Positions 397-12,719 of a stretch of DNA of 13,266 nucleotides are shown piece after piece. A model generated the notes under the pieces. That model searched no databases, was not told the origin of the DNA, and saw only the letters and a program-made list of their open reading frames with translations. A program made the position numbers and the translations under genes. Source of the DNA: an uncultured Catenibacterium sp. (lineage in GTDB: Bacteria > Bacillota_I > Bacilli_A > Erysipelotrichales > Coprobacillaceae); NCBI GenBank assembly GCA_900764725.1, contig CAAFPB010000320.1:1-13266 (forward strand), given 5' to 3'. Position 1 is the first letter of the stretch. The number at the start of each line of letters is the position of its first letter.

Positions 397-1050
397 CTAG
401 TCTTTCTGCTGAAGGTTTATCTTGAAGATCTTCTTCACTTTTGCAACTGTTCCTGGTGCCACGTCACAAAGCTTTGCGACTTTGACGATGCTCAAACCTG
501 CTTTGAGTTCTTTGATTACTTGCTTGTATTCTTGCTCCAGCTGCTCTGTTGTTTTGGTGCTTCCTTTCTTTCTGCCAACCTTGCCTCCCTTTGCTCGGTA
601 GTTATTATAACCGGATTTGAGGCGTTCCTTGATGACTGTTCTTTCGTTCTCAGCAAACTTGCTGAACATAGCAAAGAGCATCGTGAAAAGAGTATTCTCG
701 CTGCCATCTTTGTTAAACATACTTAGGTTTTCTCGCAAGAAGTAAACGTTCAAGTGGTGGTCATGAAAGAACTTGGCCAACTCGGTCATTTCCCAGACAT
801 CACGTCCCAATCTTGACACTTCCGACATTAAAACACAGTTTACGTTTTTATTTACAACTGTGCAGTATCTCAAACATTCCTGCAAGAATCGTCTTTCTGA
901 GTTTGGGGTTGCTCCAGACTGATAGTCCTGAAAGACCTTTGCAATTTCTATGTTATATTCCTTTGCAAATTCTGTCAGTTCTTTAACTTGTCGGTCTGTG
1001 TCCTGCTTACCAGTTGATGTTGACACTCTTGCGTATATTACTGCTACCAT
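397..1050 (-). CDS. Small serine recombinase (resolvase/invertase family)
   Basis: The 217-residue protein has the full small serine recombinase layout. The nucleophile motif YARVST places the catalytic serine at residue 10. The conserved SRLGRD block is at 79-84, the long dimerization helix with NERTVIKERL at about 135-144, and a C-terminal Hin/resolvase-type helix-turn-helix at about 184-208 (GLSIVKVAKL...PGTVAKV). The length is normal for resolvases and invertases, and the motifs seen are intact. Such enzymes bind short inverted sites, cut both strands and exchange them, for example to resolve plasmid multimers or invert segments. The gene diverges from the mobilization operon, so a role in maintaining that element is likely. 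A 33-bp inverted repeat sits just upstream. Which reaction it carries out cannot be read from the protein. Confidence 0.92.
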   Translation of the reverse strand: MVAVIYARVSTSTGKQDTDRQVKELTEFAKEYNIEIAKVFQDYQSGATPNSERRFLQECLRYCTVVNKNVNCVLMSEVSRLGRDVWEMTELAKFFHDHHLNVYFLRENLSMFNKDGSENTLFTMLFAMFSKFAENERTVIKERLKSGYNNYRAKGGKVGRKKGSTKTTEQLEQEYKQVIKELKAGLSIVKVAKLCDVAPGTVAKVKKIFKINLQQKD

Positions 1051-4840: not shown

Positions 4841-4924
4841 GTTTCTTTGCAGATAAGTAAACGCAGGCGTTCACAGAACTTATTCTATGTCGTGTACATC
4901 TGTAAATCGACCAAACAAGAGGGT

Positions 4925-4960: not shown

Positions 4961-5127
4961 AGCCCTCGACACCTTAGCGTCAAGGGCAAGCCTATCTGTC
5001 ACGTCCTGTCTCAGTAATGAGGCAAACACGAACTTAATCGCACACAACAACGATAGGCTTCCGCTGAGAACGTCCAGCCTCAGTGAAGAGACAAAAACTA
5101 ACTTAATAGCACATAACAACAGCGGAA
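4961..5127 (-). repeat. Structured repeat, copy A (two tandem stem units plus end hairpin)
   Basis: Read on the minus strand, unit 1 is closed by TTCCGCTG/CAGCGGAA (plus coordinates 5059-5066 with 5120-5127) and unit 2 by AAGCCTATC/GATAGGCTT (4988-4996 with 5052-5060). Both enclose the same internal blocks: GTTGTTRTGTGC near the 5' side and GGACGT near the 3' side, so the loop is kept while the closing stem changes. An imperfect hairpin GCCCT...AGGGC (4962-4966/4983-4987) follows. A near-identical copy lies at 6794-6938. Copy A begins about 78 nt after the stop of the lipoprotein gene. It may be a 3' UTR RNA or a dispersed repeat; the strand is inferred from the end hairpin in copy B. Confidence 0.75.
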
Positions 5128-5204
5128 TTTCAAATATAAGCAGGACTTCTTGTGAGAATTCGATTTACGCACTTATTTGTATAAGTAAGTTTTGCTGATG
5201 AAGT

Positions 5205-6482
5205 TTAATATAACTTTGCACCTAAAGCGTTAAGGGCGAGTTCTGCACTAGAAAATAACATGTAATTTGCCCCACTCATAGTTCCTCTGCCAAACAATTC
5301 TCCACAAACCCTTTTTGTGTTTTTGTCGTATATTATACCTCCACTATCGCCACTTTGAGGTAATGCACTAGTGGATTGATTGTTAAGTTTTGCATATACC
5401 ATTTTTTTTAGAGAAACAGTATATGTTCCTGCGACTGTTTTTACGCTTTTTTCATAAGTAACATTTATAGTCGTAACTTTGGCTTCAATTGCTTTTTTTG
5501 TTGTAGCTCCTTCCAAGATTACATTTCTATTTGTGAGACTACTATTTGGGAAAACATTGCTTCTATCCATATTTGATTTGGTCCATTGTGTGACATTGGT
5601 AGGGTAAAATAAGGCATAGTTTACTTTTACGAAAGCAGCCTCTGCATTTGGACCTAATGTCGTTTTTGATGATGTTCCACATAATTTTGAATTATAATAG
5701 ACTGATATACCTGAAGTTGGTAAACAATGAGCTGCAGTAATAAAGCCGTGGTCATTTCCTAGTATAGCTCTGAATCCAACAGAACCTATCGCTGTTGTTT
5801 TGTTATAAGTGCAAGAGATTTTAGCCCCTAAGAAGATGTTTGTTAGTGAAGATGTTGCTCTTGTTGTATTGTAAGAAGATATTGTATCTGCCAAGATATA
5901 GCTTAGGTCTTCTTCCATTTGCATTTCTTCGAATGTTATCATAGGTGAGTCTATGATATTCTTTTTGAAATCAGCAATACTTTTTGTAGAAAGACTTCCT
6001 AAAAAAACAACAATTTTATTCTTTTCTATATTAATACCTGTTGAAACCCAATTAATTTCTTTTCGCAAAGTAGGGTTTTCAAAGTAATATTTGTCGAGAT
6101 TTTCTTTTAATTCATTTAATTCGTTCAAAGAATATGTGCATGATTTAAAAAATAAATTTGGATGTTTTCCAATTCTGTTATAAATATCAGAAATTCCATT
6201 TTTATTCATATCTTTAACAAAAATAACAAGACTATCTTTAGAGTCAGTGTAACTTCCACCAAAATATGTTGGATAAGAATCTTCCTCATCCAAATCTGTT
6301 CTAGTTATATTAGAAGAGAAAGAATTGTATAAATCTTCATTTAAAGACAATGATATATCCTCTTCCGTTTGTTTTAACGTACTAGTTTTTGACCCATTAT
6401 TTGCTAAAGGGTCATTAGAACAAGATATAAAAACACAAAATAATAAAGCGAAGACAAAAATATAAAATCTATAATATCCCAT
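5205..6482 (-). CDS. Secreted lipoprotein with trypsin-like serine protease domain
   Basis: The 425-residue protein starts with a hydrophobic signal and a lipobox-like VFIS-C (Cys21), so it should be a lipoprotein; acidic residue Asp24 follows shortly, as in many surface-exported Bacteroidetes lipoproteins. Residues about 80-200 resemble a propeptide of alpha-lytic-type proteases. The C-terminal domain has TAAHC (His252) and SGDSGG (Ser380), the hallmark histidine and serine of chymotrypsin-fold proteases, plus Cys253 and Cys268 that could form the usual disulfide. The aspartate expected near residue 281 is a glutamate (NAEAAFV), so activity is uncertain. It is convergent with the mobilization operon and followed by repeat copy A. 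It probably processes itself and acts outside the cell; the substrate is unknown. Confidence 0.82.
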   Translation of the reverse strand: MGYYRFYIFVFALLFCVFISCSNDPLANNGSKTSTLKQTEEDISLSLNEDLYNSFSSNITRTDLDEEDSYPTYFGGSYTDSKDSLVIFVKDMNKNGISDIYNRIGKHPNLFFKSCTYSLNELNELKENLDKYYFENPTLRKEINWVSTGINIEKNKIVVFLGSLSTKSIADFKKNIIDSPMITFEEMQMEEDLSYILADTISSYNTTRATSSLTNIFLGAKISCTYNKTTAIGSVGFRAILGNDHGFITAAHCLPTSGISVYYNSKLCGTSSKTTLGPNAEAAFVKVNYALFYPTNVTQWTKSNMDRSNVFPNSSLTNRNVILEGATTKKAIEAKVTTINVTYEKSVKTVAGTYTVSLKKMVYAKLNNQSTSALPQSGDSGGIIYDKNTKRVCGELFGRGTMSGANYMLFSSAELALNALGAKLY

Positions 6483-6511
6483 AATTGAAAATTTTTTGTT
6501 AGTATATAATG

Positions 6512-6544
6512 CAAAAATAATAGTTTTTTGCGTTAGTTGTGCAA
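6512..6544 (-). promoter_or_regulatory. Possible promoter of the lipoprotein gene
   Basis: On the minus strand TATTTTTG (6519-6512) fits TAnnTTTG, about 30 nt before the start codon, with a weak TTGC (6544-6541) 21 nt upstream in place of TTTG. A small inverted repeat ACGTA-attTG-TACGT (6562-6566/6572-6576) lies just beyond it. Confidence 0.45.
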
Positions 6545-6548
6545 TAAA

Positions 6549-6713
6549 TTATATAATTTTAACGTAATTTGTACGTAAAAACAACAAAATGTACTTTGTT
6601 ATACAGAATGTTCCTACAGGGATTGCTGTAGCAGAGATGATGGACATGTAGAAGATGCTATTCTGATTCTGCCTCTGATGCCGTAACCTCCAAAAGTTAT
6701 CTTTGATTGCCAT
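6549..6713 (-). CDS. Possible small membrane protein, 54 residues
   Basis: An open frame starting MAIKDNFWRLRHQRQ has a basic N-terminal part and one hydrophobic stretch (about 19-46, SIFYMSIISATAIPVG...). It sits between the lipoprotein promoter region and repeat copy B, on the same strand as both neighbouring genes. There is no recognisable ribosome-binding site, promoter or family. It may be a genuine small membrane protein, the remnant of a larger decayed gene, or chance. Confidence 0.25.
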   Translation of the reverse strand: MAIKDNFWRLRHQRQNQNSIFYMSIISATAIPVGTFCITKYILLFLRTNYVKII

Positions 6714-6783
6714 ACTTGTGTCCAGTGAAAGCTACATATCCTCTTTTCTTTGGTAAGTAAAATGATTCAGTTACAAATTCTAA

Positions 6784-6818
6784 AACAATAAAAGCCCTCG
6801 ATGCCAAAGCACCGAGGG
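6784..6818 (-). terminator. Terminator-like hairpin ending repeat copy B
   Basis: CCCTCGATGC (6795-6804) and GCACCGAGGG (6809-6818) pair with one A/C mismatch around a 4-nt loop. On the minus strand a T-rich stretch (CTTTTATTGTTTT) follows, as in an intrinsic terminator. It would end transcripts from the 7024-8123 operon, and gives the repeat its most likely orientation. Confidence 0.7.
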
Positions 6819-6938
6819 AAAACCCATCTGTCACGTCCAGTCTCAGTAATGAGGCAAACACGAACTTAATCGCACACAACAACGATAGGTTTCCGCTGAG
6901 GACGTACAAACGCCCATTGGCGCACATAACAACAGCGG
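6794..6938 (-). repeat. Structured repeat, copy B
   Basis: This copy matches copy A closely: the 55-nt interior of the second unit differs at one base (6829-6883 versus 4997-5051). Its closing stem AAACCCATC (6820-6828) / GATAGGTTT (6884-6892) carries a paired change relative to copy A (G-C in A becomes A-T here), which keeps pairing. The first unit is closed by CCGCTG/CAGCGG (6893-6898/6933-6938) and is shortened, its interior replaced by a small CGCC-catt-GGCG hairpin (6911-6922). It starts about 85 nt after the stop of the 64-residue gene, the same relation as copy A to the lipoprotein gene. Confidence 0.75.
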
Positions 6939-7023: not shown

Positions 7024-7218
7024 TTACTTTGCAAAAGGACTCTTTCCTCCATGCTCTTTTAGATATTTTCGTGAACGTTCCATCATTCTGTCAATATCCT
7101 CAAACGAGAAAAGTAATTTTCTCCTTTGTGGATTTCTCTCATTCTCATCCGCCTCACGTACAAAACGTTCAGCGTCTTCACCTGTCAATACAGGTATGCT
7201 TCTTATTTCTAATGCCAT
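7024..7218 (-). CDS. Small acidic/basic hypothetical protein, antitoxin-like
   Basis: The 64-residue protein begins MALEIRSIPVLTGEDAERFVREADENE and ends in a basic helical half (RMMERSRKYLKEHGGKSPFAK). The opening pattern (I-x-S-I-P-V-L-x-G-x-x-A-E-R-F) is one I associate with small Bacteroidales proteins that look like antitoxins, but I cannot name a family or a partner, and no toxin gene is adjacent. I chose the ATG at 7218, four bases after the previous stop, over an upstream in-frame ATG at 7260 that overlaps the preceding gene. It is last in a minus-strand operon. Confidence 0.65.
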   Translation of the reverse strand: MALEIRSIPVLTGEDAERFVREADENERNPQRRKLLFSFEDIDRMMERSRKYLKEHGGKSPFAK

Positions 7219-10742: not shown

Positions 10743-10810
10743 GTTTTACTTAAAAAATACGTATAAAGGTGCCCTTAGTATACCTTCATACGTATTTTTT
10801 TGAGTAAAAC
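10743..10810. terminator. Long bidirectional terminator / cruciform-forming hairpin
   Basis: GTTTTACT (10743-10750) pairs with AGTAAAAC (10803-10810), A6-TACGTAT (10752-10764) with ATACGTA-T6 (10788-10800), and AAGGT (10766-10770) with ACCTT (10782-10786), leaving an 11-nt loop. The stem is flanked by an A-run on one side and a T-run on the other, so it can act as an intrinsic terminator in both directions. It lies 110 nt after the Fic gene's stop and upstream of the next gene's promoter. The outer 8-bp arms exceed what a terminator needs. The rest of 10636-10921 shows no gene. Confidence 0.75.
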
Positions 10811-12025: not shown

Positions 12026-12519
12026 TCACTTCTTCTTGCAGATATGTGGCTTTCTTGTTGGTTCTATGCCTTCAATGCGCAAAAATCTGTAAATAGAAGA
12101 TTTCGATTTAATACCTAGCTGTTTTTGGATTTCATCTATGGTCATGCCGTTCTTGTAAAGGGATACTGTAGCCTTGGCTTTTGTATGTCGCTTTAGCTTT
12201 GGTCTTCCCATTTTCTTGCCCTTTGCCATGGCTGCTTTGCGTCCGGCTTGGGTGCGCTCAACGATAAGGTCACGTTCAAATTCTGCAAGACTTGCGAAGA
12301 TATGCATCATTAATTTGCCAGATGTGGATGACGTATCGATATTGTCTTTAAGAGATTGTATCGATACTCCTTTTTCGTGCAACTCTGAAATGATGTTTAG
12401 TAAATCTCTTAAAGAACGTCCTAGACGGTCGAATTTATACACGACTAGTATGTCTCCCTTTCGAAGGTATTTAATCGCTTCTGCTAGCTCTAAACGGGCT
12501 TTTATGCCGCTTTTGTGCT
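12026..12519 (-). pseudogene. Serine recombinase missing its catalytic N-terminus
   Basis: From about residue 35 the sequence is a clear resolvase: KFDRLGRSLRDLL, SGKLMMHIFASLAEFERDLIVERTQAGR, KKMGRPKL and a C-terminal helix-turn-helix (MTIDEIQKQLGIKSKSSIYRFL). The first 40-50 residues of the family, including the Y-x-R-V-S nucleophile block, are absent. Instead the frame runs upstream into higA-like DNA in another reading frame and can start only at a chance ATG (12616). It cannot catalyse recombination; a DNA-binding remnant is conceivable. The fusion point is near 12508-12519. An intact, different recombinase lies at 397-1050. Confidence 0.82.
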
Positions 12520-12719
12520 CGTTGTACACCAATACGTTCACCGAGCTGTTCTTGGGTGAGATTCTGTACTTTACGAGCTTTACGAATTGCTTCGCCCAAA
12601 TAATAGGCATTAACATCTTCTTTGAGCTGCATTTCCATCATGTCACGCTCTTTAGTACCTGTCTTGCCCCAAACTTCATCAACCACTTCAGAAAGTGGTG
12701 TCAAATGCATCTGTGCCAT
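12471..12719 (-). pseudogene. higA: Truncated HigA-type XRE antitoxin
   Basis: From the ATG at 12719 the frame reads as a HigA-family antitoxin: an N-terminal region (SEVVDEVWGKTGTKERDMME) and then the start of the Cro/C1 helix-turn-helix (AIRKARKVQNLTQEQLGERIGVQRAQ, about residues 44-69). In homologues this continues with I-S-R-I-E; here it switches to KRHKSPFRASRSD, which is recombinase DNA read out of frame, and stops at 12471. So the recognition helix and the rest are lost. No HigB toxin gene is next to it. The promoter is intact and may now drive the Fic gene downstream. I kept the ATG at 12719 because the upstream in-frame ATG at 12749 lies inside the -7 box. Confidence 0.8.

What the first reader, a model, noticed from the sequence alone, without database searches (positions are those of the whole stretch)
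4961..6938. Repeated structured element with covarying stems, each copy placed 3' of a minus-strand gene
Copies at 4961-5127 and 6794-6938 share a 55-nt core with one difference, while the stem closing it changes in a paired way (AAGCCTATC/GATAGGCTT versus AAACCCATC/GATAGGTTT). Inside copy A two tandem units have different closing stems but the same internal blocks GTTGTTRTGTGC and GGACGT. Each copy begins about 80 nt after a stop codon and ends in a hairpin; in copy B a T-tract follows. Conserved loops with changing stems point to a selected RNA or DNA structure, not a decayed gene. I do not recognise it from known RNA families.
Basis: partly seen in the sequence, partly recalled or inferred. 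Interest (0 to 1): 0.75.

Follow-up and report, generated by a model that had tools for sequence, protein, structure and literature searches.

The report
Tandem-hairpin RNA module on Segatella plasmids
Two copies of a roughly 140-base folded element sit at the ends of genes on a gut-bacterium plasmid; the same element recurs beside unrelated genes on other Segatella copri plasmids and looks like an undescribed RNA that travels as a unit, though what it does is not known.

Summary
Copies A (minus strand, 5125-4988) and B (6938-6820) are each two tandem hairpin units followed by a terminator-like hairpin. The same two-unit element was found in four Segatella copri plasmids and one 86-kb S. copri genome contig: 7 elements in all. 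It was not found in phage records, in IMG/VR (three exact patterns), or in 198 sampled genomes of the order apart from S. copri's own. No Rfam family matches. In 12 distinct units 95% of proposed pairs form and 8 of 21 pairs change on both sides; sliding the partner drops pairing to 24-44%. The minus strand folds better than its complement, and it is the strand of the upstream gene. Between unrelated backbones the element is 65-94% identical while most flanks are near the random level. It is thus a self-contained module placed behind different genes (orphan antitoxin-like, protease-like, ORF6N, weakly RelE-like), each time before a terminator-like hairpin. It lacks the attC and MITE features tested. 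Best reading: an undescribed, horizontally shuffled 3'-end RNA (3'UTR element or 3'-derived sRNA). Expression and function are untested. A resemblance to type II-C CRISPR repeats was tested and remains weak.

The parts
4988..5125 (-). Element copy A: two tandem hairpin units
   Evidence: covariance-model hits 92.8 and 75.5 bits (both units were in the model)
5061..5125 (-). Copy A unit 1 (P1 CCGCTG/CAGCGG, P4 ATGT/ACGT, P2 CTA-TTAAGT-TAG, P3 GTCTC/GAGGC)
4988..5060 (-). Copy A unit 2 (P1 AAGCCTATC/GATAGGCTT; P2 CGA-TTAAGT-TCG)
4962..4987 (-). Terminator-like hairpin behind copy A (GCCCTTGACGC-TAAG-GTGTCGAGGGC, T-poor tail TTTACC)
   Evidence: not detected by the consensus scan
6820..6938 (-). 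Element copy B: two tandem hairpin units
6893..6938 (-). Copy B unit 1, shortened form without P3 (inner hairpin CGCC-AATG-GGCG)
   Evidence: 22.2 bits with R1, of which it was not a member; by translation the same shortened form recurs in metagenome ORFs (MCANGRLYVLSG)
6820..6892 (-). Copy B unit 2 (P1 AAACCTATC/GATGGGTTT)
   Evidence: 91.5 bits (was in the model)
6795..6818 (-). Intrinsic-terminator-like hairpin behind copy B, tail CTTTTATTGT
5205..6482 (-). 425-aa gene upstream of copy A; protease-like (TAAHC and GDSGG by eye; streptogrisin B only at E 0.06; 26.8% identical to an S1-peptidase-annotated protein of a Bacteroides plasmid); no Pfam or NCBIfam match
7024..7218 (-). 64-aa gene upstream of copy B; homologs elsewhere precede acetyltransferase genes, so an orphan antitoxin-like gene here (antitoxin role inferred; no Pfam or NCBIfam match)

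Best explanation
A structured RNA module of about 140 nt, transcribed as the 3' end of various plasmid mRNAs and finished by an intrinsic terminator. Each half folds into a multi-branched hairpin: an outer stem P1 free to change sequence, an inner stem P4 (RUGU/ACGU), a small hairpin P2 with the loop UUAAGU, and usually a second hairpin P3. The fold and strand are supported by computation. Movement as a unit between different genes and plasmids of S. copri is shown by the loss of homology on both sides. Inferred only: that it is transcribed and accumulates as a stable 3'UTR or 3'-derived sRNA, and that the conserved inner loops are the part read by a host protein or partner RNA while the outer stems only hold them. 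Most likely role: stabilising or regulating the 3' ends of plasmid cargo mRNAs through such a binder, or acting in trans as a 3'-derived sRNA. I cannot separate these two.
For: Covariation and slid controls; RNAalifold consensus with 8 both-side-changed pairs of 21. Sense strand -42.7, -37.8 and -43.6 kcal/mol against antisense -30.0, -28.0 and -26.3 for winA, winB and L003. Element 65-94% identical between unrelated backbones, with most flanks near the shuffled level of 49% (sharp homology ends). A hairpin with 5-7 T in the next 10 bases follows in 7 of 7 copies, from at least two terminator sequences that look unrelated to me. Co-oriented with the upstream gene in 7 of 7. By my reading, 36 ORFs overlapping the element or its 3' end in protein catalogues show about nine different 3' continuations and several 5' ones. 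No Rfam match.
Against: No transcript data. Individual fold z-scores are modest (-1.6 to -3.5). Perhaps five independent compensatory events; unit-to-unit sequence exchange inflates the counts, and the number of further pair types is not above shuffles (498 of 500 as high). Three of nine P1 pairs and four of five P3 pairs contain unpaired cells, three of those four only because L004's replaced hairpin is out of register. Copy A's terminator fails the strict scan. In a possible relative (G205) one copy is not behind a co-oriented gene. Only six records with nucleotide sequence.
Confidence: 0.55

Rival explanations
1. A DNA recombination site: the folded single strand (or the duplex) is the crossover point by which cargo genes are swapped in and out of plasmids, as attC sites do in integrons. 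The window would hold a protease cassette between two direct-repeat sites.
For: Homology between plasmids starts and stops at or near the element. The protease-like gene lies between two direct copies 1832 nt apart. Metagenome ORFs with the same 3' flank carry different 5' sequences (P0004, P0005, P0008, P0009). A possible relative in G205 also flanks a gene pair, 1.8 kb apart.
Against: No integron core boxes GTTRRRY/RYYYAAC on either strand in 7 of 7 copies. Inner sequence is conserved and ends vary, the reverse of attC (recalled). The 2.9-4.1-kb plasmids have no recombinase among their annotated genes, in a gene table that may be incomplete. A terminator-like hairpin in the same sense follows each copy, which a DNA site does not need. 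Ordinary homologous recombination between RNA copies would give the same picture.
Confidence: 0.2
2. A 3' stabiliser or terminator embellishment only: the hairpins merely protect mRNA ends or help termination, with no specific binder.
For: At the 3' end before a terminator-like hairpin in 7 of 7 copies.
Against: Long invariant or nearly invariant blocks (GTTGTTRTGTGC, ATTAAGTT, GGACGT) are more than a protective hairpin needs.
Confidence: 0.13
3. A CRISPR-repeat-like RNA (RNA anti-CRISPR or mini-array): the units imitate the repeats of type II-C systems of the genus and titrate tracrRNA or Cas9.
For: Long Cas9-linked repeats of the genus begin GTTGTGATTTGCT..AAAATTAGTATC or close to it (the subtype name II-C is recalled). 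Unit 1 matches the 14 listed (13 distinct) at 15-20 of 27 positions, best exactly at the repeat start; 0 of 150 shuffles reached the mean and 1 of 150 the maximum. Among 1.39 million positions scanned with a repeat profile, in loci rich in CRISPR arrays, the sites that score higher are by my reading nearly all CRISPR-related.
Against: The comparison was chosen after seeing a resemblance. Unit 2 scores poorly (3.4 against 13.0 bits; 2 of 150 shuffles reach its mean and 5 of 150 its maximum). Duplexes with 16 candidate tracrRNAs are unexceptional (random windows as good: 221 and 302 of 1463 for two unit-1 forms, 89 of 1463 for unit 2). Element bases 6 and 9 (T, G) differ from those of the listed repeats (G at 6; T at 9). 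The S. copri genome with a copy had no Cas9 match (G001).
Confidence: 0.06
4. A MITE, REP or insertion-sequence end.
For: Repeated, hairpin-forming, intergenic.
Against: No terminal inverted repeat (0-1 nt) and no consistent flanking duplication (longest 0-6 nt, differing between copies). Only one full element in the S. copri genome searched. No insertion-sequence database was searched.
Confidence: 0.03

Closest known systems
Multicopy sRNA families of Bacteroides, e.g. FopS (PMC11697453, passages read)
   Same: Paralogous small RNAs in Bacteroidales; [quoted passage not shown]
   Different: FopS occurs at 12-15 copies per Bacteroides genome. Here one or two elements per replicon, mostly on plasmids, with tandem units. 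FopS letters were not available, so sequence was not compared
Integron attC sites
   Same: Hairpin site behind each gene; modular gene neighbourhoods
   Different: No core boxes in 7 of 7; terminator-like hairpin follows
RNA anti-CRISPRs (Racr, solitary repeat units; PMC10651486, abstract and passages read)
   Same: Non-coding element on mobile DNA; partial likeness to Cas9-linked repeats of the genus
   Different: Tandem and far from identical to the repeat; the published finder discards candidates with partial matches in the 100-bp flanks
Type III toxin-antitoxin RNAs (ToxI; recalled)
   Same: Tandem structured repeats next to a terminator
   Different: ToxI lies upstream of one toxin gene; here the element lies downstream of different genes

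Membership tests
Structured 3'-end RNA / 3'UTR-derived sRNA | Conserved RNA fold with compensatory changes | tested here: met
   95.3% paired, 8 of 21 pairs with both-side changes, slid controls 24.1-43.5%; few independent events
Structured 3'-end RNA / 3'UTR-derived sRNA | Ends at an intrinsic terminator, co-oriented with an upstream gene | tested here: met
   7 of 7 terminator-like hairpins, though copy A's fails the strict scan and the other five were not put through that scan; 7 of 7 co-oriented
Structured 3'-end RNA / 3'UTR-derived sRNA | Expressed and processed | not testable with these tools
   no transcriptome data
Integron attC | R boxes RYYYAAC and GTTRRRY | tested here: not met
   none on either strand in 7 copies with 15 nt flanks
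Integron attC | Integron integrase in the host | not tested
   no search made
MITE / IS end | Terminal inverted repeats and target duplication | tested here: not met
Any Rfam family | Covariance-model match | tested here: not met
   window and 10 loci, E up to 1, none at the element
RNA anti-CRISPR (Racr) | Close sequence mimicry of a CRISPR repeat | tested here: inconclusive
   15-20 of 27 for unit 1, poorer for unit 2; duplex energies unexceptional
tRNA / tmRNA | ARAGORN match | tested here: not met
   0 genes in the window

The most novel reading that the evidence does not exclude
The tandem units are a plasmid-borne decoy RNA, derived from or converged on Cas9-linked CRISPR repeats, that blunts Cas9 immunity of Segatella hosts and is traded between plasmids as a portable RNA module.
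Probability: 0.05. Interest if true: 0.85.

Novelty: new member of a known kind. Interest (0 to 1): 0.5.

Why it matters
If the RNA is real, it is an undescribed structured RNA family on plasmids of a common human gut bacterium. It has the unusual property that the RNA element, not the gene beside it, is the unit shared by otherwise unrelated plasmids. That would make a concrete question testable: whether small plasmids carry portable 3'-end RNAs that act on the host, or that mark the points where cargo genes are swapped.

Tried and rejected
Coding explanation: the frame LLCAIK..LRLDV is open through both units in many copies, but by my reading it is broken in L004 unit 2 and shifted in copy B unit 1, and the inner hairpin is replaced in L004 by another hairpin, so a peptide is unlikely. 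Antisense control of the replication gene: best duplexes to the rep start regions ranked 284 of 552, 81 of 384, 23 of 1786 and 95 of 384, with no consistent signal. Small gene as owner of the element: of 20 loci with homologs, model R1 found the element in one (L090, S. copri) and a 10.9-bit partial match in L091; the 3' flanks of 18 of the 20 were printed. Weak covariance-model hits L061 and L062 lie inside ORFs and L060 is borderline. L014 has a degenerate block without a closing hairpin; L015 was not examined. L110 lies inside a long ORF and L111 folds into nothing similar. Of the four genome contigs pattern hits, L006 and L007 are unrelated on reading and L008 was not examined. A 40-nt exact match of 4883-4922 to S. 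copri plasmid NZ_CP085933 is outside the element and unexplained.

Model R1 was built with the P3 helix one column off. The pair count was first made with that structure (84.5% paired) and repeated with the corrected one, but all searches with R1 used the uncorrected model. Genome searches covered even samples of the genus (299, 398 or 120 genomes), family (399) and order (198), not all genomes. Literature searches listed no title or abstract start describing this element; of the papers, passages of PMC11697453 and PMC10651486 were read and nothing else beyond the search listings.

Full report
What is there. The window shares 96-98% identity over four stretches (2723, 2315, 547 and 122 nt) with S. 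copri plasmid NZ_CP152355 (L003), so it is very probably plasmid DNA of that species. Copies A and B were confirmed. Read on the minus strand, each is two tandem units. A unit consists of an outer stem P1, the block GUUGUURUGUGC, a short hairpin P2 (CKA-UUAAGU-UMG), usually a hairpin P3, the block GGACGU that pairs back as P4 with RUGU, and the P1 return strand. RNAalifold draws P4 in a shifted register. Copy B's first unit has lost P3. A terminator-like hairpin follows each element.

Where else. BLAST against 72,556 plasmid records found four S. copri records. Among the genome contigs (84,980 species) the pattern gave four hits, of which one is the element, on an 86-kb S. copri contig that I take to be chromosomal. 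Phage records and IMG/VR with three exact patterns gave none. In 299 genomes of the genus the full element occurs only in the S. copri genome G001. In 198 genomes of the order it is again only there, with two matches that look like chance. ORFs that overlap the element or its 3' end in protein catalogues give 36 further predicted proteins. By my reading these show about nine different 3' continuations, several different 5' ones and a recurrent P3-less first unit. A few look like fusions of unit 1 with unit 2 or of the small gene with unit 1, or may be assembly artefacts.

Structure. Across 12 distinct full units (13 rows; the P3-less unit of copy B was left out) 95.3% of 232 cells form standard pairs and 8 of 21 pairs change on both sides. 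Sliding the 3' partner by 1-3 columns gives 24.1-43.5%. Shuffles do not reach the observed covariation score (0 of 500), but the tool warns that relatedness can do this. The number of further pair types was not above shuffles (498 of 500 as high). Compensated changes include P1 pair 2-72 (AU/UA), 3-71 (GC/AU), 6-68 (CG/UA), P2 pair 22-31 (UA/GC), and the wholly different P1 of units 1 and 2. Exceptions are A.C or A.G mismatches in P1 of L001, L003 and L005, a C.A in P3 of three units (winA, winB, L001 unit 2), and L004 unit 2, whose replaced P3 is out of register in the alignment. Fold z-scores of whole elements run from -1.6 to -3.5. The antisense strand is 10-17 kcal/mol less stable in the three copies folded, as expected if G.U pairs on the sense strand matter.

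Module. Pairwise identities of the element are 65-97% (81-97% if copy B is set aside). The flanks sit around the level of shuffled sequence (50 shuffles of one 50-nt pair: mean 48.9, maximum 56.1). Exceptions are the kin pairs: L002/L004 on both sides, L003/L005 upstream, L001/L002/L004 downstream, and winB/L005 downstream (73%). A few other pairs reach 56-59% upstream or downstream. Homology between the window and L003 stops just after the small gene (7023/3088), resumes only in the element and stops again at its end. Upstream genes are an antitoxin-like gene (window B, L003, L005), the protease-like gene (A), an ORF6N gene (L001) and a weakly RelE-like gene (L002/L004; E 0.0086, below the Pfam cut-off, tested on L002's). 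Homologs of the antitoxin-like gene elsewhere are followed by acetyltransferase genes in both of the two loci tested with Pfam. In S. copri no such partner follows.

Possible relatives. A 19-nt block, GTGCGATTAAGTTCGTGTT, identical to unit 2 recurs inside hairpins with other outer stems in G205 (twice), G083 and G438, and with one mismatch in G067. G083 and G438 share 32 nt at 97%, so these are related to one another. Their link to the plasmid element rests on one block. BLAST E-values for it are 2e-4 to 0.01 per genome over 299 genomes, model scores 14-25.5 bits, and in the family search the reversed control pattern also gave one match against one true one. I treat the link as suggestive only. 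In G205 the two copies flank a gene pair, as in the window, but one of them lies in front of an oppositely oriented gene rather than behind a co-oriented one, which does not fit a 3'UTR.

What it is not. No attC boxes, no terminal inverted repeats, no consistent target duplication, no Rfam family, no tRNA. The CRISPR resemblance is described under rivals. It stands out in a profile scan for unit 1 but fails on duplex energy and on unit 2, and was chosen after the fact.

Mechanism. Supported by computation: fold, strand, tandem form, following terminator-like hairpin, modular spread. Inferred: transcription as the 3' end of the upstream gene, stability of the RNA, and a binder that reads the conserved loops. 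I put the RNA reading first (0.55), then a DNA recombination site (0.2), then a simple 3' stabiliser (0.13).

Noticed in passing
window 4883-4922: 40 nt identical to an intergenic spot of the 167-kb S. copri DSM 18205 plasmid NZ_CP085933 (16057-16096), with no evident similarity on either side; seems part of a decayed reading frame there.
   Followed up: partly
window 7024-7218: Orphan antitoxin-like gene whose homologs in other Prevotella-like genomes precede GNAT acetyltransferases (2 of 2 tested); no such partner follows it in the window, L003 or L005.
   Followed up: partly
window 397-1050 and 12026-12616: Two different serine recombinases (resolvase family) in the same window; the second is shared with L003.
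   Followed up: no
L064 (G205 contig 47) 5145-7116: Gene pair (188 and 282 aa, no Pfam, NCBIfam or PADLOC match) between two direct repeats of a hairpin element, near a gene that looks by eye like a mobilisation relaxase.
   Followed up: partly
L001 674-1291: ORF6N gene beside the element matches the PADLOC candidate defence model PDC-S05 (E 2.8e-68).
   Followed up: no
window 10743-10810: AT-rich palindrome between the 364-aa winged-helix gene and the Fic gene.
   Followed up: no
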